From Methanomicrobiaceae archaeon (lineage in GTDB: Archaea; Halobacteriota; Methanomicrobia; Methanomicrobiales; Methanomicrobiaceae), in assembly GCA_016926855.1 (NCBI GenBank), contig JAFGNT010000002.1, positions 1 to 64,000 of the forward strand: a DNA stretch of 64,000 nt, read 5' to 3'. The position numbers and the translations under genes were made by a program. Positions 15,791 through 28,507 of the stretch are shown here, piece after piece. Each line of letters opens with the position of its first letter. Position 1 is the first letter of the stretch. The notes under the pieces were generated by a model. It was not told the DNA's origin, searched no databases, and worked only from the letters and a program-made list of their open reading frames with translations.

Positions 15791-17821
15791 TCAGGGCCCG
15801 TCCATCCGGCACCGGTCCCCCGGAACGGTGATCTCGAAGCGGGCTCCCTTCCCCTCCTCGCCCGTCTCTTTAATGGACATGCCGGTGATGCCCAGTATCT
15901 CTTTTGTCAGGAACAGCCCGTAGCCGGTGTGTCTGCCGACGCCCCGGTTAAAGATGGTATCCTTCAGGGAGGCAGGAACCCCCGTCCCGTTGTCCTCCAC
16001 GACGATGACACAGTCCTCCCCCTTCTCATGGCAGGATACACCGATCTCCGTGACGTGGCCGCCATGGGCTATGGCGTTGTCCAGCAGGTTGTAGAAGGCC
16101 TTTTCCAGCATGGGATCGGCGAACACTTTCAGGCCACCGGTGGACACCGTCAGGCTAACCCCTTCCAGTATGACGCTCTCCGCCGCCCGCTTCACCACAT
16201 AGGTCACCTGCTGCCACACCGGATTCTTTTCTCCCATGTGCTGGTAGTCCCGGGTGAAGATGATCTGGCGGTAGATATTATCGGTGATCATGTTCAGCTT
16301 GGAAAACATCTCCACTGATTCGGGGTCCCCGCAATGCCGCTCCTCCATGAGGTACAGGAAGCCCTTCAGTGCCGTCATCTGGTTGAGGATATCGTGGCGG
16401 GTGATGCTGGAGAGAAGGTTGAGCTTTGAACTGGCCTCCTTGATGGCTTCCTGGTATTTATGAATGGCAGTGACGTCCTGGTCCACTCCCGTCAGCCTGC
16501 AGGGTCTTTTCTGTGCATCATGTGCCACCACCTTTCCCCGTGTGAGGATCCAGACATAGTGGCCCTCCTTCGTCTTCATCCGGTACGTTGCCTCGGCATA
16601 GGGGGTTTTTCCCCTGAGGTGATCCCGGAAGATCTCCAGCGTTCCTTCGCGGTCGTCGGGGTGTACATGCTCCTCCCATGGCACAATCGGATCCCCGGGC
16701 TCGTAGCCGATCAGCAATCTCCAGTGCGCATCGGTGATGACGTCGCCGGTCGCCAGGTTTTTGTCCCAGACTCCCAGCCGTGCCCCTTCGATGGCAAGGT
16801 TCAGGCGCTCTTTATTCTCCCGGAGTGCCTCCTCCGCCCGTAACCGCTCGATCACATTCCCGATCCGGATGGCAATGACGTCGAGCAAATCGCGCTCCTC
16901 GGCGAGAAACGGCCCTTCTTCCGCGTCCGGTTTCTCACTCCGGTAGCAGACCTCCACCGTCCCTATCGGTTGCCCGTGCGCGGAGATTGTGCTCGACAGC
17001 TTCCACTTCGTCTCGATAAAATTGGGGGTGGCGCACTCGATATCACCGGCACGGATGCGGGCGCAGGCGCTGTGGGGATATTTCCAGGCAGGGGGGATCT
17101 GCGCCACAATGCCCCGGAGGGTCTCTTCGAGCGGAGCCCTCCGCTCGATGACGCGGGCGATATCGTAGAGGCAGTGCAGTTTTTTTACCCGGTCGTCAAG
17201 GAGAATTTTCTGGTGTTGCAGTGCCTCCTGTGCCGCTTTCCGGTCGGTGATGTCGCGCAGCAGCCAACGCAGGTGGGCGGCTGCTTCCCCCTTTTCCCGG
17301 ACGGCGGATACCGACACCAGCACGGAGAGGGGGGGACGGTCCCGTGGCTGCAGCGCCAGCTCCCATTCCCGCACATCCTTCCCGATGCCTGAAGAGAGCC
17401 CGGTTACCCGTGAATGGAACACTTTTTTACTGTCATCGGCGACATACAGCACCAGCGGTTTGCCTGCAAGATAGTCCCTGCGGGCATTGAGCATCGACGC
17501 TGCGGCGGTGTTCACCTCGAAGATCACACCCTTCGTATCGGTCACCACGTAGCCGTCGGGGGCGCCCTCGAAGAGATCCAGGTACCGCTGCCGCTCGGAT
17601 TCCACCTGCTGACGGGCCTCTTCCATTATGTCGCTGGCCGCCAGCAGCTCCTCATGGGCGACCTCAAGTTCTTCCAGCGAGACGGTGAGTTCCTGGAAGA
17701 GGATATCCAGCCGGGATTTATCGGAGAGATGCGTGTCGCCGGCGATTTTTTCCAGCCGGCTGCGAAGGGCGCTGATATCCTTTTCGAACGTGGGGTGATA
17801 CTCCCCTTTTTCCGGTGTCAT
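15791..17821 (-). CDS. PAS/GAF sensor histidine kinase
   Basis: 676 residues, no transmembrane helix. Order: N-terminal helix, PAS (about 95-200, DLFEGAPDGYVVTDTKG), a GAF-like domain (about 220-360, LYDIARVIERRAPLEETLR), PAS with PAC (about 375-490, EGARLGVWDKN), a phosphoacceptor helix with SSITRHDILNQM, and an ATPase domain with DNAIAHGG, EDNGTGVP and GYGLFLTKEILG. The ATG at 17821 overlaps the preceding stop (ATGA), so it is translated after the PAS coiled-coil gene. No response regulator is adjacent. Probably part of the CheB/CheR-linked unit. Confidence 0.9.
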   Translation of the reverse strand: MTPEKGEYHPTFEKDISALRSRLEKIAGDTHLSDKSRLDILFQELTVSLEELEVAHEELLAASDIMEEARQQVESERQRYLDLFEGAPDGYVVTDTKGVIFEVNTAAASMLNARRDYLAGKPLVLYVADDSKKVFHSRVTGLSSGIGKDVREWELALQPRDRPPLSVLVSVSAVREKGEAAAHLRWLLRDITDRKAAQEALQHQKILLDDRVKKLHCLYDIARVIERRAPLEETLRGIVAQIPPAWKYPHSACARIRAGDIECATPNFIETKWKLSSTISAHGQPIGTVEVCYRSEKPDAEEGPFLAEERDLLDVIAIRIGNVIERLRAEEALRENKERLNLAIEGARLGVWDKNLATGDVITDAHWRLLIGYEPGDPIVPWEEHVHPDDREGTLEIFRDHLRGKTPYAEATYRMKTKEGHYVWILTRGKVVAHDAQKRPCRLTGVDQDVTAIHKYQEAIKEASSKLNLLSSITRHDILNQMTALKGFLYLMEERHCGDPESVEMFSKLNMITDNIYRQIIFTRDYQHMGEKNPVWQQVTYVVKRAAESVILEGVSLTVSTGGLKVFADPMLEKAFYNLLDNAIAHGGHVTEIGVSCHEKGEDCVIVVEDNGTGVPASLKDTIFNRGVGRHTGYGLFLTKEILGITGMSIKETGEEGKGARFEITVPGDRCRMDGP

Positions 17822-19131
17822 TTTTTCACCCCGGTGGTTTTTTCCACCCCGGTTGTTTTCTTCCCGCCAGCGGGTGCCTTTCCGGTCACGTCCTCGATGG
17901 CGAGCAGGATCAGCTCCTCTTCGCCCCGTGCCGGGATGAGCCGTCGTGCATTCAGCAGCATTCTCCGTGTGCCGATGCCGGGGAACGTGTGAACCACCTC
18001 GAAATTCCTGAAGGTGGACTCCTCGGGGAGGATCTCTTCGAGAAGCCTCCGCAGCTCGGGGATGTTCCATTGCCGGTTGCCGATGTCGTAGATGCGCTGT
18101 CCAATCGTGTCCTCGATTCCTGTCTTGAAAGTGCTGAAGAAGGACCGGTTGGCGAAGACCACCTTCAGGTCGCGGTTGAGAATGATCAGGGGCTCGCGCA
18201 GCGTGTCCACAATTCGCTTGTCGATTCCCAGGACCTCTTCCATCAGCAGGACCACCCCCTTGCGGGATCCGTGCTCGTCGATCAGCGGGGTTGCGATCAC
18301 CTGGCAGCGGAACGACCGCCCCCTCCGGTTCACCGCATCGAGCATCTGTTCGTGGAAGTCCGCCCTGTCCTTCAGTATCTCGCCGACGGGCGCCTTCAGC
18401 TGTTCCGTCGGCAGGCCGATATCGAGGGAGAACAGCGATTTGCCTGCCACCTCATCGGTTCGCAGCCCCCAGAGATCATGTGCCTCCTCGTTCCAGATGA
18501 GGACATTATACTCGCGGTCGACCACCACCACTCCCGAATGGAGACTGGCCAGGATGGCTTTGAGGAACTCGTTTGACATGTTCACTTCCTCGGTCCGCAT
18601 GCGGAGTTCGTCGTTGATCGTCTCCAGTTCTTCGTTGGTGGACTGGAGTTCCTCGTTCATGGTCTCCATCTCCTCGTTGGTGGACTGGAGCTCTTCGTTG
18701 GTGGTCTCCAGTTCCTCCACGGTGGACTGGAGTTCCTCATTGGTGGTCTCCAGTTCCTCGTTGGCCGAATTGAGCTCTTCGTACGAAGCCTCCAGCTTCA
18801 CTTTGGAATCGAGGAGTTCGATTTCCAGCTCCTTGGATTGGGTCACGTCCTGGAAGGCGATGCTTACTCCCGCCAGCTCGCCGCCGTTCGCGATAAGGGG
18901 CACTATCTGCACCTCAAGGTGCCGGGTGGTGCCGTCGGGAAGAGTTTTTTTCACATCGGAGAGGGAGGCCGGTTTCCGTCTCTCGATCACCCGCTCGATG
19001 GGGGAGCGGAGTTCCACCGGCCTGTACGAGAGCTCCAGGTCAGAGAAGGGACGGCCGATATCTTTTTTGGAGAGACCGAAGAGGGAGCGTGCCCGGTTGT
19101 TGGCCAGCACAAGGATTCCGTCGGCATCCAC
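17818..19131 (-). CDS. PAS-coiled coil-PAS signalling protein, C-terminal half of a split CheR-PAS protein
   Basis: The segment contains PAS (VDADGILVLANNRARSLFG), a long heptad-type coiled coil built from NEELxxTNEELE repeats, two more PAS domains (LHSGVVVVDREYNVLIWN and EPLIILNRDLKVVFANR) and a Lys-rich tail. It lies in the same frame as CheR upstream; only the TAA at 19243-19245 separates them, and the 37 codons between that stop and 19131 are open and read like the usual linker. The GTG at 19131 has no ribosome site, so independent translation is doubtful. In bacteria CheB, CheR and these PAS domains are one polypeptide. Confidence 0.75.
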   Translation of the reverse strand: MDADGILVLANNRARSLFGLSKKDIGRPFSDLELSYRPVELRSPIERVIERRKPASLSDVKKTLPDGTTRHLEVQIVPLIANGGELAGVSIAFQDVTQSKELEIELLDSKVKLEASYEELNSANEELETTNEELQSTVEELETTNEELQSTNEEMETMNEELQSTNEELETINDELRMRTEEVNMSNEFLKAILASLHSGVVVVDREYNVLIWNEEAHDLWGLRTDEVAGKSLFSLDIGLPTEQLKAPVGEILKDRADFHEQMLDAVNRRGRSFRCQVIATPLIDEHGSRKGVVLLMEEVLGIDKRIVDTLREPLIILNRDLKVVFANRSFFSTFKTGIEDTIGQRIYDIGNRQWNIPELRRLLEEILPEESTFRNFEVVHTFPGIGTRRMLLNARRLIPARGEEELILLAIEDVTGKAPAGGKKTTGVEKTTGVKK

Positions 19132-19242
19132 GACGATCTGGGCGGTCTGGGCGGTAGTGAATGCGACCTCCCAGAGAGGGACGGGACACGGTTCGGGGGC
19201 CTCCTGCTCTATAACGGAGACGGCGACCGGCGGGGCACGCCT

Positions 19243-20064
19243 TTATACGCCGGGTACCCGGGAAAAGACCCGGAACCTGAGAGTATCCGGCCTGAAGAAT
19301 CTGGCGTGGGTCAGGAGCATTTCGGCCTTCCCCAAAAAGAGAAAGCCGGTATCTTTAAGGGCGAAGTGAAAGCGTTGCAGGATCTTCGCCTGCGTTTCGG
19401 CGATGAAGTACATCAGGGTGTTGCGGCAGACTATCAGGTCGAGACGGGAGATGGGGGCGTCCTGAACGAGGTCGTGGCGGCCGAAGATCACCGTTCGTCG
19501 GAGATCGGAGAGGAAGACGTAGTTGCCCCCCTCCAGGATGAAATATTTCTCCCTCAGCCCGGGAGGGACGTGCTCCACGTCTCTTTCGCTATAGCTGGCG
19601 TGACGGGCGATCTCCAGCTCCTCTTCGTCTGCATCGGTGGCGTAGATCTTGACCCGTTTCTTGAATGCCTCCACCCCGAGGATCTCGGCCATTATGATGG
19701 CGATGGTGTAGGCTTCCTCGCCCGAGGCGCACCCGGCGCTCCAGATGCGGACGGGTTCGTCCTCCGTGAGGGTGGCCAGAATGCGGGGGATAATCTCCGC
19801 GGACAGGTAGTCCCAGGCGGGTTTGTCCCGGAAAAAGGCGGTGACGTTGATGAGAATGGTAGTGAAGAGGGCCCCGAACTCCTCCGGGTGGACCTCCAGG
19901 TAGTCCTGATAATCACCGAATTCCTCGATCTTTATCTCATGCATGCGTTTTTTGATGCGGCGCCGGAGGCTCGACCGCTTGTAGCCGGTAAAATCAAACC
20001 CTCGCTGGAGCTTTAAGTATTCAAGGAGATGTTCAAACCGCTCGTCATCTGAAACGGTAGTCAC
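19243..20064 (-). CDS. CheR-type protein-glutamate methyltransferase (cut from its PAS half by an in-frame TAA)
   Basis: 273 residues. An N-terminal helical domain (SLRRRIKKRM) precedes the SAM-binding Rossmann fold with motif WSAGCASGEEAYT, an acidic loop (ATDADEEELEIA) and the family segment VCRNTLMYF. CheR methylates glutamates on chemoreceptors or related sensors. The start is GTG 20064, overlapping the CheB stop as GTGA. The frame runs on past the TAA at 19243-19245 into PAS domains, so the original protein was longer. The CheB, CheR, PAS and kinase set resembles bacterial CheBR fusions and was probably acquired by transfer. Confidence 0.85.
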   Translation of the reverse strand: MTTVSDDERFEHLLEYLKLQRGFDFTGYKRSSLRRRIKKRMHEIKIEEFGDYQDYLEVHPEEFGALFTTILINVTAFFRDKPAWDYLSAEIIPRILATLTEDEPVRIWSAGCASGEEAYTIAIIMAEILGVEAFKKRVKIYATDADEEELEIARHASYSERDVEHVPPGLREKYFILEGGNYVFLSDLRRTVIFGRHDLVQDAPISRLDLIVCRNTLMYFIAETQAKILQRFHFALKDTGFLFLGKAEMLLTHARFFRPDTLRFRVFSRVPGV

Positions 20065-20651
20065 GAGACTTCACCTTTCGTTACAAGGGTCACCAGGGCA
20101 TCCGCGATTTCGTCGAGACCGAGGATGAAGTCCACGCACCCTGTTTTGATGGCGGCCTGGGGCATGCCGAAGAATTCGGATGTCTCTTCATCCTGCGCGA
20201 TCACCGTGCCCCCGACGTTCCTGATGGCCTGTACGCCCATGCTCCCGTCGCTGCCGGTGCCGGTGAGCACCACGGCGATGCTCCGCTCCTTGTAACTGCC
20301 CGCCACCGACTCGAAGAGCAGGTCGGCCGAGGGGCGGACAAAGTGGACCAGCTCCGACTGTGTCAGCGAGATGGTCCGGTCCGGGTTGACCAGCATGTGA
20401 TGGTTGGGGGGAGCGATGTAGACCGTCGCCAGCTGCAATTTCTCCCCCTCTTCGGCCTGTTTGACCGCAAGGAGCGTGCGACGGGACAGGATCTCGGACA
20501 TCAGGCTGCGGTGGCGGGGATCGAGGTGCTGGACCACGACCACCGTTACGGGAAATCCGTCGGGGAGCCGGCCGAGGATCTGCCCCAGTACGGTGAGCCC
20601 GCCTGCTGATGCCGCCATGGCGATGATGTCATAGGCCGGTGTGGGTGTCAT
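20061..20651 (-). CDS. CheB-type methylesterase domain protein
   Basis: 196 residues from ATG 20651; the frame is open to 20807 but the added N-terminus is Arg/His-rich and unlike CheB. The catalytic triad is visible: Ser15 in AASAGGL, His42 in VVVVQHLDPRH, and Asp135 in TGTGSDGSMG. There is no receiver domain, so activity is not controlled by direct phosphorylation as in classical CheB. The gene leads a unit in which CheR, the PAS segment and a histidine kinase follow with 4-base overlaps. No CheA, CheW or receptor gene is in view. Confidence 0.87.
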   Translation of the reverse strand: MTPTPAYDIIAMAASAGGLTVLGQILGRLPDGFPVTVVVVQHLDPRHRSLMSEILSRRTLLAVKQAEEGEKLQLATVYIAPPNHHMLVNPDRTISLTQSELVHFVRPSADLLFESVAGSYKERSIAVVLTGTGSDGSMGVQAIRNVGGTVIAQDEETSEFFGMPQAAIKTGCVDFILGLDEIADALVTLVTKGEVS

Positions 20652-21140
20652 GGGTGGCGCCCGGGGAGTGTCATGAGAAGCAGGGACGAAATGCAGTGCA
20701 TCAGGATACCACCCCCTCTTGTCAAATTCTTTTTTACTGTACGGACGGCGGTGTGCCGCCGGGCTGTTCCGGGAACGCATATGCCGCTCTTTTCCGGATT
20801 TTAACATTTCATATTCTTGTATGGTGTCTATTTATAGGTGGCGGGGGCTTTCGGGAGCGGGATACGCGGGCACGGGTACTCTCGGTTTATGGTGTGATAC
20901 AACAGTCTGTTTCGTGCTTTCATCCATTTTATTATTGATCTAAAGCTATTACATCGAGAAAGACTGTGTCCGGTTCCATAATTTTGACTTTGTGCTTTTT
21001 TTAAGGTAATACTGAGATAGATGCTGGCGGCGTGGAAATGCAGCAATATAAAAAGAGATTTATTGAATGTAACCATCGTTTACAGAGTAGAAGAAGTAGC
21101 AGAGATTGTTAAACAAGAGTTTCATAAAAATGGTATATAA
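20652..21140. other. AT-rich gap without a convincing gene
   Basis: About 490 bases upstream of CheB, becoming AT-rich after 20900. A possible 39-codon frame at 21021-21140 (+) reads naturally at its end (VYRVEEVAEIVKQEFHKNGI) and stops immediately before the Cas3-like relic, so it may be another scrap of foreign DNA. It has no good ribosome site and I do not call it a gene. The promoter for the CheB unit must lie in the right-hand part of the leftward transcript, roughly 20680-20830. Confidence 0.4.
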
Positions 21141-21416
21141 CTGATAGAGCGATCTTTCTTTCAGAGAGCTACGGGACACCAACCATATCCGTTTCACCAC
21201 AATCCTGCAACCTCAGAACTGCTTCCCGATCTGATCACTATCCCTACCGGCATGGGAAAGACTGATGCAATTTTTTTGAGTTGGATCCGGAGGAGGCGTT
21301 TTGATCCACGATCTGAGATCGCGGGTCGCACCCGGGGTACGGCATTTCCTGGCGTGGATGGCACTACACCGGGTGCACCGGGCCCTCACCGCGAGGGCGG
21401 CTATCGGCTCAGGTAG
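21141..21416 (+). pseudogene. Remnant of a Cas3-like helicase N-terminus (type I-G/I-U style)
   Basis: An open stretch of 91 codons with no usable start codon reads ATGHQPYPFHHNP, then LLPDLITIPTGMGKTDAIFL and SWIRRRF. This matches in order the start of Cas3 from type I-G (I-U) systems: TGHxPYPxQ, LPDxLxxPTGxGKT (Walker A), then LxWxxRRF. Similarity ends near 21310, and the frame then runs through unrelated sequence to a TAG. No other cas gene is near. I infer a decayed fragment left after loss of a CRISPR-Cas locus. A remnant of another superfamily 2 helicase is possible. Confidence 0.5.
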
Positions 21417-21521
21417 CATACGGCAGTGCGTATATCGTGAGCAGATATAATGCATATGCACGCTGAAATCCGGGAAAAAAGATGATTTATCCGAATTGTG
21501 AGATGTGCAATGTGGTGGATT

Positions 21522-22169
21522 CTAATGCCACCACCACCACCACCTGTTCATCACCACAACCACGCTCCGTGCGAAATCGCTGCCGGCATTATTCGAGACC
21601 CGGAGAGTGATCCGATAGATGCCGGCTCTGGTATAGGTGTGCATCGGATCCTTTTCGGTCGAGGTGCTGCCGTCTCCGAACCACCAGTTGTAATTGATGG
21701 GATCGTTCAGCGAGCGGTCCGTAAATGTCACGGTGAGCGGTGTCTTTCCGACATGCCTGTCCTGTCTGAACCTCGCAACGGGTCGCTTAATCTTTTCAGC
21801 AACGGTGATATACTCCGACTTCACGCAACTATCCGACCCGCCCGGGCCGGTGACCGTGAGTTTTACCGTGTAGGCTCCACTCCTGGTATAGAAAAAGGAT
21901 GGATGCTGCTCCGTGCTGTCCACGTGGCCATCATTCTGGAAGTCCCAGGCCCATGCCGTGATAGTTCCCGTTGATTCGTCTGAAAACTTCACCATAAGCG
22001 GGACGGTTCCCGCGGTAGGGTTCGCGGTGAAATCGGCCACCGGCGGGGCGGCCGGCACAACATCGCCCGTAATGGTGACGGAGTTGCCGGCAAGCACCGG
22101 AGCAACGAGCAGAGCCAGCGCAACGATAAGGGTAATGACCGTACCCTTCCTGAAAACGGTGAATTTCAT
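21522..22169 (-). CDS. Secreted protein with two PKD domains and a poly-Trp C-terminus
   Basis: 215 residues: signal peptide (MKFTVFRKGTVITLIVALALL), PKD1 (about 42-120, TITAWAWDFQNDGHVDS) and PKD2 (about 128-205, PINYNWWFGDGSTS). It ends VVVVMNRWWWWWH, the five Trp codons coming from a run of TGG triplets. There is no anchor helix. The ATG at 22169 overlaps the stop of the 1088-residue gene, so the two are coupled. PKD domains mediate surface protein contacts; likely a companion of the large protein above. Confidence 0.82.
   Translation of the reverse strand: MKFTVFRKGTVITLIVALALLVAPVLAGNSVTITGDVVPAAPPVADFTANPTAGTVPLMVKFSDESTGTITAWAWDFQNDGHVDSTEQHPSFFYTRSGAYTVKLTVTGPGGSDSCVKSEYITVAEKIKRPVARFRQDRHVGKTPLTVTFTDRSLNDPINYNWWFGDGSTSTEKDPMHTYTRAGIYRITLRVSNNAGSDFARSVVVVMNRWWWWWH
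21525..21543. repeat. CCA trinucleotide repeat (poly-Trp coding)
   Basis: About six CCA units on the plus strand, read as TGG on the minus strand at the extreme 3' end of the PKD gene. Slippage here would change the number of terminal tryptophans, and a shift in frame would extend or alter the end. Confidence 0.7.
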
Positions 22170-25100
22170 ACAAACGCCCCCGTAAAGGTAATCGTGATGT
22201 CATAATCACCCGGTTGATCCGCATCACTGATGGCCTGCTTTACCGACACGGCGCGGCTCCCGTCGTTTCCGGCACTTCCAGTCAGGAAGTCGGCGAAGGT
22301 AGCGGTCATGTCCTTAAATGAGCCGCCGTTTGAAAGCTGGAACGGACTGGCGAGATTTGCACTTCCCGTACCCATGTAGCCGCCGTTGCTGGCTTGCACC
22401 GTGACCGACCACGCAGTCCCGCCGGTAACATCGACATGCACTTCCGTGCCGCCGGTCGAATCGACACCGGGCTGCATGGTTCCGAAGGTGATGGACGCCG
22501 CGTCCACGGTCACTTCAATAATGGCATCGCCGACCAATACATAATCGGTCTTCGTTTTGGTGTCAGTATAATCCGGGCCGGTTGCGGTCAGGCTCACGGT
22601 ATAGGTTCCCTCGTCCAGGTACTCGTGGACCGGATTCTGCCGGTCGGAGATCTGACCGTCGCCGAAATCCCATGCCCAGGCGTCAACCTGTCCGCCGGTG
22701 TTTATTGCGGTAAACGCAACGGTAAGCGGCCGGGCGCCGCTTGTCGTGTCGGCCGAGAAGTCGATGACCGGAGCCGGTTCTTTGACGGTGATTGAGCCCT
22801 CCTCTTCGTCGCTCCCGCCGGGCCCCGTTATTGTGAGTTTTACGGTGTAGCTGCCGGGGTCATTGTAGATGTAGCTCGGGTTCTCATCGGTGCTGTCGGT
22901 CATCCCGTCATTGTCGAAGTCCCAGCCCCAGCCGGTAATCGTACCTGTGGACTGGTCCGTGAACTGCACGGTGAGGGGGGCATCACCGGAGGCAGGGTCT
23001 GCTGTGAAGGCTGCGAACGGTGCAGCATCCGCGTACTCCACCACCAGGAAGACATGGCTTACCGCCATCACCGGTGTGGCCCCCGGGGTGCTGCGAATCC
23101 CCGCCTCGTTCCCGGTTGCCTGAAGATATGCCGTCACGTCCCGGCTGTCAACCGCCACCTGCGGGCCGGATAAAGAGCCGAAATCCCAGACCGAGGTGGC
23201 GAGGGTCGCCCCGTTGAAGAGCAGGTCTCCCTCCGGTCCGTTCCCGGACGGGACGAAGGTGGTCAGGTATGCGTAGGAGACATCGGCCGGTACGATGGCC
23301 ATTCCGGAAAACGGCACATACGCGGTCGCCTCTTCAGGGGTAGTGGCATATCCGGTCTCATCAGCGCCGAGGATATCGAATTCTTCGTTCAGGAAGATCT
23401 GCTTCCGGGTTTCGGTGGCATCCTCGTAGATCACCGCAAGGGTGAGGCCGTAGAGTGCAACATTTGTATATGCATCATCCTTGGAAAGGAGAGCCGTATT
23501 TTCTGCCGGGTTGAAGAATGACGATACATCGTAGGTCATGAGCCCATAATCGTGATTTGCATAGCCTGCGAAATTTTTCCGGTCTTCGTAATGGTGCCCG
23601 GGTGTCAGTACGTTCCCGTTAAATGTAAGGTCGAACCTGTCCGGCATCTCGCCCGAATTATCCCAGGTATAGGGTACGTAGAGGCGTGCCTCCCGGACGC
23701 TCGCCCCTGCAGGAAGCGGCAGATCATCGCCCGTCCAGGTAACCGTACATGAGGACCAGCCCCCTCCGCTTAAACCGCCGGTCTGATAGGTACTGTCGCC
23801 GGATGAATGGAGAAGGCCGCCGCGGAGATCAAAGGTCCGCTGTGTGGTGACATCGTTGTTATCCCAGTAACGCTTGCCCTTGTACCCGTTGAACTTCACG
23901 GTCTTCGTTGTGCTGGCCTTATGATTGTTCGTTTCGTCTGTTTCTGGGACGATATCGTCAGGATCTGCGGTGGCGGAATACGTGACAGTTCCCCCCTCGC
24001 CGGTCCGGATGGTCGGATCGATCACGTACACCGTTTCGGTCGCAGCGGCGTCAAGTGACGGCACGGCTGCGCGGATATCAACCCCGTCGGTTGACGTGAG
24101 CCGGACTTCGGTGGTCGGTGAGGTATCGGGGCCGTTGTTCTTCACCGTGACCCGAACCCGGTTCGGTTCTCTGGCAAAGACGTTCCCCGTATCCGGGTTT
24201 ACAAGAGTGACCGTAAAGTCGCAGTCGGAAAGAGCGGTCACCGTGATGTAATCTTCCCTGATGTCATCGTCACTCCCGCCAGGATTGGTTGCCGTCAACG
24301 AAACCGAAAAGGTTCCTTCAGTCTGGTACTCGTGGATCGGATTTTGCAGGGTGCTGTCCACCGTCCCGTCGTTATCGAAATCCCACGCCCATGATCTGGG
24401 ATCGTTCGTCGAGAGGTCGGTGAACTGCACGGTGAGCGGTGCCGTACCGGTGGTCTTATCAGCTGTGAAATCAGCGACCGGCGGGTCAGCCGGGGATTCT
24501 CTCTCCATCTTCACCTCGAGCGTGGCCAGCGGGATCTTGTAAAATTCAACGTTCCGGTCGTAGGTGAGCGTGGTGCCGCTCCCCGGCTGAACTGCGGAGG
24601 TCACATCCCAGATGTTGTACCCGAAGTACGCGCCCTGGTAGTTTCCGGTGGCCGGATCGGAGGGGATGCCGGTACCCCGGAAGGTGTAGGTACCATCCTC
24701 GCTTGCCAGATGGTTCACGGTAAGGGTGGCGGACTCCACTGTACCGGTGAGTCCTGAGAGGTCGAAGAAAGTTTCACCGATATAATCCCCGATATTTTCG
24801 TCGGAAAGGTAGGAGTCCACATCATGACCCTGATTCACCCGGTAGTGCACATCGTCGGTATCACCGTCGTTGTACGCCACGACGAGCGTGATCATCTTGA
24901 TCCGGCCGTCGAAGATGGTCTCCCCGTCTGTGACAACATGCACCGCCGGGGTCCGGGATGTGATGACAGATGTGACATCGTACCACATCAGGTAGTCGCT
25001 CGTCACCCGGGTGCAGTGGTCGTTCACAACGACGGGCGTGCTGCCCCCCTCGTACTCATAGACATAGGCAACGTTCAGGTTCTCGGTGCTCCACGTCGTT

Positions 25101-25432
25101 TCGCAGGTGCCGTCGCCGTTCCCGTCGAAGGTAACGGTTGCGGTCCCCTTGCGGTTGTCCTGCATATGCCCGCAGTAGACCGCGACATAGAGCCGGGCCC
25201 ATACAATGTCGCTCACGTCCGGGATGCTCGCAAAGGTTTTCGTCACGTCCTGCGATCCCCAGGCGGAATTGTCGGCGTCCACGTAGAGCCCGCCCGAAAC
25301 CGTGCCGGACTGCACCGTTGCAGGCGGTTCGCCGCCGACGTAGCTGTCTGCGGAGGCCGCCCCGGCAAGGCACAGGAGCAGAAGGATACCCAGGACCGGG
25401 CCCCATTTTCGTTTTTTTATGATACTCTTCAT
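22166..25432 (-). CDS. Giant secreted DUF3344/PKD/CARDB surface protein
   Basis: 1088 residues with a signal peptide (GPVLGILLLLCLAGAASA). Order: DUF3344 module 1 (about 30-325, YVGGEPPATVQSGTVSGGLY, WARLYVAVYCGHMQ); PKD (about 330-400); CARDB (about 405-495); DUF3344 module 2 (about 500-800, FNGYKGKRYWDNND); two PKDs (about 805-960); and a C-terminal beta domain (about 970-1088, SITFGTMQPGVDSTGG, AWSVTVQASNGGYMGTGS). The last domain is nearly identical in pattern to the end of the 628-residue protein at 26621. No transmembrane anchor is visible, so retention must be non-covalent. Confidence 0.87.
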   Translation of the reverse strand: MKSIIKKRKWGPVLGILLLLCLAGAASADSYVGGEPPATVQSGTVSGGLYVDADNSAWGSQDVTKTFASIPDVSDIVWARLYVAVYCGHMQDNRKGTATVTFDGNGDGTCETTWSTENLNVAYVYEYEGGSTPVVVNDHCTRVTSDYLMWYDVTSVITSRTPAVHVVTDGETIFDGRIKMITLVVAYNDGDTDDVHYRVNQGHDVDSYLSDENIGDYIGETFFDLSGLTGTVESATLTVNHLASEDGTYTFRGTGIPSDPATGNYQGAYFGYNIWDVTSAVQPGSGTTLTYDRNVEFYKIPLATLEVKMERESPADPPVADFTADKTTGTAPLTVQFTDLSTNDPRSWAWDFDNDGTVDSTLQNPIHEYQTEGTFSVSLTATNPGGSDDDIREDYITVTALSDCDFTVTLVNPDTGNVFAREPNRVRVTVKNNGPDTSPTTEVRLTSTDGVDIRAAVPSLDAAATETVYVIDPTIRTGEGGTVTYSATADPDDIVPETDETNNHKASTTKTVKFNGYKGKRYWDNNDVTTQRTFDLRGGLLHSSGDSTYQTGGLSGGGWSSCTVTWTGDDLPLPAGASVREARLYVPYTWDNSGEMPDRFDLTFNGNVLTPGHHYEDRKNFAGYANHDYGLMTYDVSSFFNPAENTALLSKDDAYTNVALYGLTLAVIYEDATETRKQIFLNEEFDILGADETGYATTPEEATAYVPFSGMAIVPADVSYAYLTTFVPSGNGPEGDLLFNGATLATSVWDFGSLSGPQVAVDSRDVTAYLQATGNEAGIRSTPGATPVMAVSHVFLVVEYADAAPFAAFTADPASGDAPLTVQFTDQSTGTITGWGWDFDNDGMTDSTDENPSYIYNDPGSYTVKLTITGPGGSDEEEGSITVKEPAPVIDFSADTTSGARPLTVAFTAINTGGQVDAWAWDFGDGQISDRQNPVHEYLDEGTYTVSLTATGPDYTDTKTKTDYVLVGDAIIEVTVDAASITFGTMQPGVDSTGGTEVHVDVTGGTAWSVTVQASNGGYMGTGSANLASPFQLSNGGSFKDMTATFADFLTGSAGNDGSRAVSVKQAISDADQPGDYDITITFTGAFV

Positions 25433-25584
25433 CTTTTTCCCTCACTTCGGTACATTCATCCGTTTATTTCCAGCCGGCTGAAACGCTCCGGAACCGGGCG
25501 GCATTGACCCCCATATGTCCTGTCGTTGCCGAAAAAAGGAGGATGGAGTTCCCGGTGATGACTGCCGTGTTCTTCATCCCGGCA

Positions 25585-26529
25585 TCACCGTCCCCCTTTC
25601 CTGTACCTGAGTGCCCCGAAGAGCACGACCGCCAGTCCTCCCATTGCGGCCAGAGCCCCGAAGCCGGGGGTTGCGGCGGCTGAGGCTGAGGGGGCGGCTG
25701 CCGGATTTCCAATTCTCAGTGTGCCCGTCTTTTCGGCAAGCAGTGTTCCGTCCTGCTTTTCCACGCGGGCGATCATCTGGTAGGATCCTTCGGCAAGGCC
25801 GTCGCTGATGGCCATACTGAAATCAATCGACTGGCCGGGGACCACAGCACGGATAAACGGGTCATTGCGCACCGATGCGATCTCTGTTCCCGCTGTATCG
25901 TTTATCGTCACCGTACTCACCACCCCATAGTAGTGGTAGTTACCGGTGTTGGTGAAGGTCGCAGCAACCTCGAAGGGTGTTGCCGGGTCGGCAGCAGCAG
26001 GCGCAAGCGCAGAGATCTCCCCTGCCTCGGTGATGGCGCCGCTGCTTACCGTAAGAAACACCGGGATAGCAACCGCAGTGGCGAACGCCGCCGGCGCTCC
26101 CGACGCGGACGCGGCCGGATGGACGAGAATGATCGCGTAACGGCCGCCGTCCAGTGTCCCGGACGGTACCGTAATCGTCGCGGTGACGTCCGCCCGCTCG
26201 CCGGGCTTCAGGGTCACGGTCGGGGTGTCGATAGTGATGAATGTCCGGGCCGAATACGGGCTCGTATCCGCCGCTGCCTCAAGGCCGGTGTAGGTCCCTT
26301 CCGCGGGCGACTGTCCGAATCCCATCACGTCGATGGCAAACGTCCCTTCGGACTCTTCGGTATTGATGGAAATCACGATCGGAGACGTGGTGGTTGTTCC
26401 CGGTTCTACGTCGAGGGCGATCCGCGCCCCCTCCACTTTCAGGGCAAGGGCGGGCGCTGCGAACAGGGCCCCCGCTACAAGAAGCGTGAGTGCAACAAGG
26501 CAGAGTTTTTGGTTGTATTTCCGGTTCAT
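25585..26529 (-). CDS. Secreted DUF916-like protein with PGF-CTERM anchor
   Basis: 314 residues: signal peptide, a beta domain (about 31-150: ARIALDVEPGTTTTSPIVI, VTLKPGERADVTATITVP, GGRYAIILVHP), a second Ig-like domain (about 175-280), an Ala/Ser spacer, then TPGFGALAAMGGLAVVLFGALRY and a basic end. The PGF motif, helix and Arg/Lys tail make this a PGF-CTERM archaeosortase substrate, to be lipid-anchored. The first domain resembles DUF916, found in Firmicutes next to WxL-domain proteins. It sits between two large proteins sharing a WxL-like end, which suggests it anchors them. Confidence 0.82.
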   Translation of the reverse strand: MNRKYNQKLCLVALTLLVAGALFAAPALALKVEGARIALDVEPGTTTTSPIVISINTEESEGTFAIDVMGFGQSPAEGTYTGLEAAADTSPYSARTFITIDTPTVTLKPGERADVTATITVPSGTLDGGRYAIILVHPAASASGAPAAFATAVAIPVFLTVSSGAITEAGEISALAPAAADPATPFEVAATFTNTGNYHYYGVVSTVTINDTAGTEIASVRNDPFIRAVVPGQSIDFSMAISDGLAEGSYQMIARVEKQDGTLLAEKTGTLRIGNPAAAPSASAAATPGFGALAAMGGLAVVLFGALRYRKGGR

Positions 26530-26620
26530 GGTGGTATCAGTGCTCCGGCAGGAAATATTCTGTCGCGTTTTTCCGGGGATGCCGGAAAAATGGCGGGTGG
26601 AAAGATCACCCCCCCTCCCA

Positions 26621-28507
26621 TCACGCCATTGACCCGGTGAAGGTCAGCGTGATGCTGTAGCTCCCCGGTACATCGGCTGCATCGATGGACTGCTTCACAT
26701 GGGCTGTACCACTGCCGTTGTTTCCTGCAGTGCCGGTCATGAAGTCAGCGAAGTTCGCCGTCATGTCCTGGAACACACCGCCGTTCGAGAGCTGGAACGG
26801 GCTGGCGAGATTCACGCTGCCGGTACCCATGAATCCGCCGTTGTTAGCGGATGCGGTTACCGACCAGTCCGTGCCGCCGGTGACATCGACATTCACCGTC
26901 GTGCTGCCTTCCTCGTCGACCCCGGCCTGCATGGAACCGAAGTCGATGGATGCATCGGTGAGGGTGACCTCAATGGTGGCTCCGCCGACCTGGATATAGT
27001 TCTCCTCTATCCCGGTGTCCGAGCCGCCCGGGCCGGTTGCCGTCAGGGTTACCGTGTAGGTGCCTTCGCTCAGGTACTCGTGGGTCGGGTTCTGTTCGGC
27101 GGAGGTTTCGCCGTCGCCGAAGTTCCATGCCCAGCTGTCAACCAGCCCGCCGGTGTTCGTGGCGGCGAATGCAACGGTGAGCGGTTCGGTTCCGGAGGTC
27201 GGCGTGCCGGTGAAGGTGATGTCCGGTGCCGCTTCACTCTTCTCGACGACAAGAATAGTGTTCATGGCGTACATGTTGTCGCCTTCCGTGCTGGAAATGG
27301 AACTCTGCAGGCGTGCTTCGTTGGTACCGCCGGCAAGCACGGACGTCACATCATAAACCGAGAATCCTACCTGCGGACTGCTCTGGTAATCTTCCCAGAA
27401 ACCGGTATATTCCTGGCTGTTGAAGGAAAACGTGCTCTCGCCCGCGTCGCCGGCGCTGGCAAGAATGGCAATGGCGGTAGCGCTCCCCACGTCGGTGGTG
27501 TCGACCCCGGAGAACGATGCATATGCCGTCGCCTCGTCATCGTTCACAGAGTATGAATTCCGGGCCCAGAGCATGTCGAACTCGTCGTTGATCCAGATTT
27601 GTTTGATGGTGGTATCATCGTCCTGGTAGACGACAATCAGGTAGGCTCCGTAGATACCGTAGTTCTGCCCTGATTCGGGCGTGATTGTCATGGTATTTCC
27701 GGCTGTGTCGAACTCGTCGGTCACATCATAGACATAGAGGCCGTACGGGTAGCTGTAGCTGCCGAAGCCCTTGATATCCTGGTATGTCGCAACAGGTTCG
27801 ACGATATTGCTGTTGAATGTCATGGTGAATGCCGGGTCGACGCCCATCTTGTTGTATGTATATCCCTGGTACAACCGGGCGCTCTCCACGGTCGCACCTG
27901 CCGGGACGGGGAGATCGGAAGCCGACCAGTCGTAGGCTGTTTCTGTCCAGCCGGCACCATTGTATGCTGTCGTGCCGGCAGAATAAACGACGTCGTACCG
28001 GCCGTCAAATAACTCCTGCGTGACCAGATCGTCCCCGTCTGTCCAGCGCTTGCCTTTGTACCCGTTGTAGTACAGGATCAGGTCTGCGGTCATCGCGTTG
28101 TTTGTCTCGTCGGACTCCGCGATGACGCCATCAGAGTCCGCGGTTGCTATGACGGTGATGGGGCCGGTTGCATAGGCGTGAGAGACGGTGTCCGTCACGG
28201 TGACCGTTTCCGATGCGCCGGCGGCAAGTGCGCCGACTGCGGCGGTGCAGGTCTCGCTGCCGATAACAACCGATACGGTCGATGCTGCGGCCTCAAGTCC
28301 GCCGTTGTTCGTCACGATGACCGAGATGACGTTCGGCTCGTTGGCGAACATCGCCGCCCCGGCACCCACGTTGGGGTTGATAGCGGTGACCGTCAGGTCC
28401 TCATCCACAACGCTGCCGGAGACCGTAACGTCGGCGGCAGATACTGCTCCCGGCACAACCAGGAGCAAAATCAGGGCGATGATGCCCAGCAAAGTCAGGT
28501 GTTTCAT
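26621..28507 (-). CDS. Secreted CARDB/DUF3344/PKD surface protein
   Basis: 628 residues: signal peptide (LLGIIALILLLVVPGAVSA), CARDB (about 30-140), DUF3344 module (about 150-435, YYNGYKGKRWTDGDDLV, KQIWINDEFDML), one PKD (about 438-510, DSWAWNFGDGETS) and a C-terminal beta domain (about 512-628, SIDFGSMQAGVDEEGS, DWSVTASANNGGFMGTGS). It is a shorter paralogue of the 22166-25432 protein, lacking the first DUF3344-PKD part. GGAG sits 8 bases before the ATG at 28507. First gene of the leftward arm of the island. Confidence 0.86.
   Translation of the reverse strand: MKHLTLLGIIALILLLVVPGAVSAADVTVSGSVVDEDLTVTAINPNVGAGAAMFANEPNVISVIVTNNGGLEAAASTVSVVIGSETCTAAVGALAAGASETVTVTDTVSHAYATGPITVIATADSDGVIAESDETNNAMTADLILYYNGYKGKRWTDGDDLVTQELFDGRYDVVYSAGTTAYNGAGWTETAYDWSASDLPVPAGATVESARLYQGYTYNKMGVDPAFTMTFNSNIVEPVATYQDIKGFGSYSYPYGLYVYDVTDEFDTAGNTMTITPESGQNYGIYGAYLIVVYQDDDTTIKQIWINDEFDMLWARNSYSVNDDEATAYASFSGVDTTDVGSATAIAILASAGDAGESTFSFNSQEYTGFWEDYQSSPQVGFSVYDVTSVLAGGTNEARLQSSISSTEGDNMYAMNTILVVEKSEAAPDITFTGTPTSGTEPLTVAFAATNTGGLVDSWAWNFGDGETSAEQNPTHEYLSEGTYTVTLTATGPGGSDTGIEENYIQVGGATIEVTLTDASIDFGSMQAGVDEEGSTTVNVDVTGGTDWSVTASANNGGFMGTGSVNLASPFQLSNGGVFQDMTANFADFMTGTAGNNGSGTAHVKQSIDAADVPGSYSITLTFTGSMA

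What the first reader, a model, noticed from the sequence alone, without database searches (positions are those of the whole stretch)
21141..21416. Cas3-like helicase relic in an AT-rich gap
The reading ATGHQPYPF ... LLPDLITIPTGMGKTDAIFL ... SWIRRRF follows the order of the type I-G/I-U Cas3 N-terminus, has no start codon and stops matching after about 55 residues. It suggests this strain once carried a type I-G system at this spot. The preceding 39-codon frame may belong to the same debris.
Basis: partly seen in the sequence, partly recalled or inferred. Interest (0 to 1): 0.6.

Follow-up and report, generated by a model that had tools for sequence, protein, structure and literature searches.

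The report
Leftover fragment of a CRISPR gene
A methanogenic archaeon carries a dead 160-base stub of the Cas3 gene of a type I-G CRISPR immune system, joined to a scrap of an unrelated enzyme gene; it is ordinary genomic debris showing that an ancestor once had (or received) DNA of that system.

Summary
The Cas3 reading is real. Frame 21153-21311 (+) matches the N-terminus (positions 4-59 of 854) of the type I-G Cas3 family TIGR02621 at E 2.6e-11; the best PADLOC model is Cas3g. The closest intact or contig-cut Cas3g genes are 73-76% identical over 55 aa and 79% in DNA, over the same 159 bases in both. Homology then stops dead, before almost all of the helicase and the HD nuclease. There is no start codon, and an in-frame stop lies just upstream. 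No Cas8g/Csx17, no Cas4g/Cas1g and no I-G repeats were found in the same assembly, whereas G060 has a complete I-G operon with array. So this is a pseudogene stub. The 39-codon frame upstream matches nothing convincing. Whether a whole I-G locus stood here and was deleted, or only scraps landed here, is not settled; I favour deletion. Ordinary; low interest.

The parts
21153..21311 (+). Stub of the 5' end of a type I-G cas3 (cas3g) gene, 53 codons including the Walker A motif (TGMGKT); no start codon
   Evidence: TIGR02621 positions 4-59, E 2.6e-11; PADLOC Cas3g 7.3e-12; 79% DNA identity over exactly these 159 bases to cas3 of G060 and G139
21318..21410 (-). Internal fragment of a carboxymuconolactone decarboxylase (CMD, PF02627) gene in antisense, about 27-31 codons, both ends missing
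   Evidence: 75.6% DNA identity over 90 bases to the intact CMD gene on contig C34 of the same assembly, E 7.9e-12; only Pfam match is CMD, weak, E 0.07, positions 31-57 of 84; 54-61% protein identity to three intact CMD genes
21312..21317 (.). Junction between the two gene fragments, resolved to within a few bases
   Evidence: Cas3 DNA match ends at 21311; CMD match starts at about 21318-21319
21138..21140 (+). TAA stop in the Cas3 frame directly upstream of the relic
20652..21152 (.). Upstream intergenic DNA, AT-rich in 20841-21152; includes the 39-codon frame 21021-21137. No family or relative identified
   Evidence: 41 bases at 20777-20817 match G019 at 83%

Best explanation
A dead remnant. 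An ancestor carried a type I-G cas3 gene of the kind now found in family f4 of the same order. A deletion removed everything after about codon 53 of the recognisable part, and presumably the rest of the operon and array, and joined the stub to the inside of an antisense CMD gene that is itself missing both ends. The stub has no start codon and lacks almost all of the helicase and the HD nuclease, so it makes no Cas3 and has no function. Shown: the Cas3 and CMD identities, the truncation points, and the failure to find the other I-G parts that were searched. Inferred: that a larger I-G locus was present here, and that deletion (not insertion of scraps) made the junction.
For: Family match TIGR02621 E 2.6e-11, Cas3g E 7.3e-12. 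Best relatives 76% (G139, gene cut by a contig end) and 73% (G060) over 55 aa. Cas3g of G060, G015 and G007 score 775-799 bits in frames of 801-857 codons; the G060 operon is cas3g-cas8g-cas7g-csb2-cas4g/cas1g-cas2 by family models, followed by an array. In G000: no other TIGR02621 match above 24.3 bits, no match to Cas8g, only one Cas1, a separate gene and not Cas4g/Cas1g, no I-G-type repeat with up to 3 mismatches, whereas the same pattern counts 144, 56 and 32 in G060, G007 and G015. dN/dS of the stub against G139 and G060 is 0.23 and 0.28, with 19 of 33 and 19 of 34 differences at third positions, so most of its divergence passed as a working gene; G139-G060 is 0.13.
Against: The site itself gives no sign of a whole operon: only the 5' stub remains, and no other I-G gene was found on this contig. 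The stub's nearest relatives are in another family (f4) than the host's own (f1), so the segment may have arrived by transfer, possibly already broken. The assembly is about 89% complete, so an intact operon elsewhere is not fully excluded.
Confidence: 0.72

Rival explanations
1. Filler DNA: only short scraps of cas3g and CMD genes, from other places or other cells, were joined into this intergenic gap during break repair; a whole I-G locus never stood here.
For: Two short fragments of unrelated genes in opposite orientation lie within about 260 bases; the CMD piece lacks both ends; nothing else of I-G found on the contig; collinearity with genus g8 breaks at 20642, at the start of cheB, so this is a rearranged place.
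Against: The Cas3 piece begins about 10-30 codons after the usual Cas3 start and is in one unbroken frame, as expected for the 5' end left by a deletion.
Confidence: 0.2
2. Assembly chimera in a draft assembly (35 contigs, about 89% complete).
For: Draft assembly; no second assembly of the species could be examined.
Against: The stub carries its own substitutions, is not identical to any searched cas3, and lies 21 kb inside a 95.5-kb contig.
Confidence: 0.04
3. The 91-codon frame, or the Walker A stub, is expressed as a small protein with a new role.
For: The frame is open for 91 codons and TGMGKT is intact.
Against: No start codon before the Walker A motif; none of the other 99 genomes searched has a match that covers both halves of the frame in an open frame; residues conserved in the intact proteins are changed (W to R, L to P); the tail is another gene read antisense.
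Confidence: 0.03

Closest known systems
Type I-G (formerly I-U) CRISPR Cas3, TIGR02621 cas3_GSU0051 / Cas3g
   Same: N-terminal block of about 55 residues with order and spacing ATGH-PYPF-...-IPTGMGKTDAI-...-RRRFDPR, 49-73% identical to three intact Cas3g proteins of the same order
   Different: About 795 of 854 model positions missing, no start codon, fused to antisense CMD sequence
Carboxymuconolactone decarboxylase family, PF02627
   Same: 27 residues ALAVRARCTRCSAIHARKCRTPGATRD align to the middle of intact CMD proteins
   Different: No N- or C-terminus; conserved positions altered; only 13.6 bits in Pfam, below its cut-off of 23
Degraded or lost CRISPR-cas loci as a known class of genomic debris (general knowledge, recalled)
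   Same: Truncated cas gene without partner genes or array
   Different: Very short, and joined to a second gene scrap

Membership tests
Type I-G Cas3 (Cas3g) | Sequence match to TIGR02621 in the N-terminal helicase part | tested here: met
   E 2.6e-11, positions 4-59 of 854
Type I-G Cas3 (Cas3g) | Full-length match above the curated cut-off (400 bits) | tested here: not met
   43.1 bits; so it is a fragment derived from the family, not a member gene
Type I-G Cas3 (Cas3g) | C-terminal HD nuclease domain (cas3_HD match at 622-742 of G060 Cas3g) | tested here: not met
   No such sequence after 21311; none elsewhere on the contig
Type I-G CRISPR-Cas system | Cas8g/Csx17 in the genome | tested here: not met
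   No match in G000 at E 0.01 with G060 Cas8g; the query's own gene was found in G060
Type I-G CRISPR-Cas system | Cas4g/Cas1g fusion | tested here: not met
   The only Cas1 in G000 is a separate gene of 336 aa around C1:21771-22586 that scores 93.5 bits against the cas4g_cas1g cut-off of 560
Type I-G CRISPR-Cas system | Cas7g, Csb2 and Cas2 genes | tested here: inconclusive
   Not found on contig C12 or in the stretches of C1 and C34 examined, apart from one insignificant Cas2 match, E 0.018; not searched in the rest of the genome
Type I-G CRISPR-Cas system | CRISPR array with the I-G repeat of relatives | tested here: not met
   0 matches with up to 3 mismatches in G000
CMD family (PF02627) | Complete domain above the curated cut-off | tested here: not met
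   13.6 bits against 23; identified as a fragment by DNA and protein matches to intact genes

The most novel reading that the evidence does not exclude
The Cas3/CMD chimera is a footprint of break repair that stitched short scraps of two genes into one intergenic gap, so that the host never had this CRISPR system here: filler-DNA capture in a methanogen.
Probability: 0.2. Interest if true: 0.3.

Novelty: new member of a known kind. Interest (0 to 1): 0.15.

Why it matters
It is a small fossil: it records that type I-G cas3 DNA was once in this lineage, although its genus mate G001 shows no I-G Cas3 above background and no Cas8g, and only 6 of 232 genomes of the order match the stub, its own genome included. 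It is one more example of CRISPR loss or failed gain. It changes nothing about how I-G systems work.

Tried and rejected
Unrelated helicase: rejected; the next NCBIfam match is 10.6 bits, E 0.081. Cas3 continuing in another frame past 21311: rejected; no frame of 20700-21560 gave a further Cas3 match to G060, G015 or G007, and the G060 operon matches contig C12 DNA only at 21153-21311. The 39-codon frame as a gene fragment: best outside match E 0.24 among 100 genomes, chance level; no Pfam, NCBIfam or PHROG match. Phage or plasmid carriage: no phage record matches, no viral contig encodes a relative, one plasmid record (Embleya) has a distant 42% match. RNA gene: no Rfam match in the window. 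tRNA-targeted integration: no tRNA in the window. Literature: three paper searches were seen as listings, plus passages of PMC9638904; no paper on this locus was seen in them.

Full report
The observation. The frame at 21141-21413 (+) is open for 91 codons, starts after an in-frame TAA and has no start codon before the methionine of TGMGKT. NCBIfam gives one significant match, TIGR02621, type I-G Cas3, E 2.6e-11, residues 5-57 of the frame on positions 4-59 of 854. PADLOC gives Cas3g at 7.3e-12. In a scan of the whole assembly with the same model the stub scores 40.4 bits and the other 7 matches at most 24.3; all 14 control genomes have some match but none over the cut-off, so weak helicase matches are common and the stub stands clearly above them in this genome. 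Three other helicases in relatives G060 and G007 score 33-37 bits, but on other parts of the model.

Relatives. Of 100 related genomes searched with the 91-codon frame, 7 matched at E 0.01, the window's own included; three others were strong: G060 (70%), G015 (55%) and G007 (54%). Of 232 genomes of the order searched with the 55-codon Cas3 part, 6 matched at E 1e-4, own included; G139 was best at 76%, then G060 at 73%. G060, G015 and G007 hold full-length Cas3g; the G139 gene runs to a contig end. By family models the G060 operon reads cas3g, cas8g/csx17, cas7g, csb2, cas4g/cas1g, cas2, and repeats follow. G015 and G007 have the same order of gene sizes and repeats, but of their genes only the G015 Cas3 was checked. 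The stub is closer to family f4 (G139, G060) than to its own family f1 (G015, G007).

Truncation. DNA homology to G060 and to G139 covers the same window bases, 21153-21311, at 79%. Upstream the intact proteins of G060, G015 and G007 have 9 to 27 further residues, which are not recognisable here. Downstream the relatives go on with RTPRRLVYCLPMR (G060) or RTPRRLIYCLPMR (G139), while the window passes into a different gene.

The second scrap. Bases 21319-21405 match, in antisense, the intact CMD gene on contig C34 of the same assembly, 75.6% over 90 bases, E 7.9e-12. On the minus strand 21318-21410 reads EPIAALAVRARCTRCSAIHARKCRTPGATRD; 3 of 100 genomes have a match at E 0.001, own included, and the three intact genes are 54-61% identical, in frames of 114-121 codons. 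Pfam sees CMD only weakly (E 0.07). Both ends of the CMD domain are missing. Differences at codon positions 1, 2, 3 are 5, 7, 8 against the C34 gene, 4, 8, 14 against G021 and 3, 7, 11 against G023, over 27 codons, so a third-position excess shows in two of three comparisons only. In none of the 90 loci held was a CMD gene found beside an I-G operon; that covers only the flanks fetched.

State of decay. Nei-Gojobori dN/dS is 0.23 (stub-G139), 0.28 (stub-G060) and 0.13 (G139-G060), on 53 codons. Where G139 and G060 share a codon the stub differs at 11, five of them changing the residue, including W to R at a place that is W in the three intact proteins aligned. This fits a gene that worked for most of its history and died later, but the numbers are small and include the branches of the intact genes.

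What else of the system is left. None of the six G060 I-G proteins matches contig C12 outside the stub, apart from insignificant matches (E 0.018 and 0.16). In the whole assembly Cas8g is not found, the only Cas1 is a separate gene, and no I-G repeat is found. Cas7g, Csb2 and Cas2 were not searched genome-wide. The assembly is about 89% complete, so these absences are good but not final.

The site. The block 15795-20642 (cheB, cheR-PAS and a sensor kinase by my reading of the sequences) is collinear at 80% with G008 and G014 of genus g8, and collinearity ends at 20642, at the start of cheB. There the next gene upstream is a response-regulator-like frame; here it is the gap with the two scraps and then PKD-domain proteins (by my reading). 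Genus mate G001 has no close cheB (32%), so no orthologous site could be read in it. The gap is thus a rearranged place.

Mechanism and verdict. I judge a remnant left by deletion most likely (0.72), capture of scraps second (0.2). The Cas3 identity itself I hold at about 0.98. It is ordinary debris; the one correction of substance is that the frame is a chimera of two dead gene pieces. The only experimental source consulted, PMC9638904 (passages seen), reports that Walker A and B mutants of type I-G Cas3, K39A and D164A, bind and nick but do not give the degradation smear of the wild type; a stub that ends just after the Walker A motif, without the rest of the helicase and the nuclease, therefore cannot act as Cas3 (inference).

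Noticed in passing
G000 contig C1:21771-22586 (L063:11681-12688, -): Separate Cas1-family gene with no array in the 35 kb examined and no I-G neighbours; similar separate Cas1 genes occur in G001 (L065:5136-6068) and, beside the I-G one, in G060 (C1:1159595-1160410).
   Followed up: partly
18561-18812: Nine 21-base-spaced repeats inside the coding sequence of the cheR/PAS-type protein, reading ELQSTNEELETTNEE-like heptads on the minus strand, probably a coiled coil; matching repeats in G008 and G014.
   Followed up: no
20642-20817: Collinearity with genus g8 stops at the start of cheB; a 41-base stretch at 20777-20817 matches G019 C9 at 83%.
   Followed up: partly
20061-20807: The cheB frame as listed probably starts near 20651; the extra upstream codons are not matched in G008 and G014.
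   Followed up: partly
21522-28507: Several PKD-type surface proteins (by my reading) in a row on the minus strand beside the relic.
   Followed up: no
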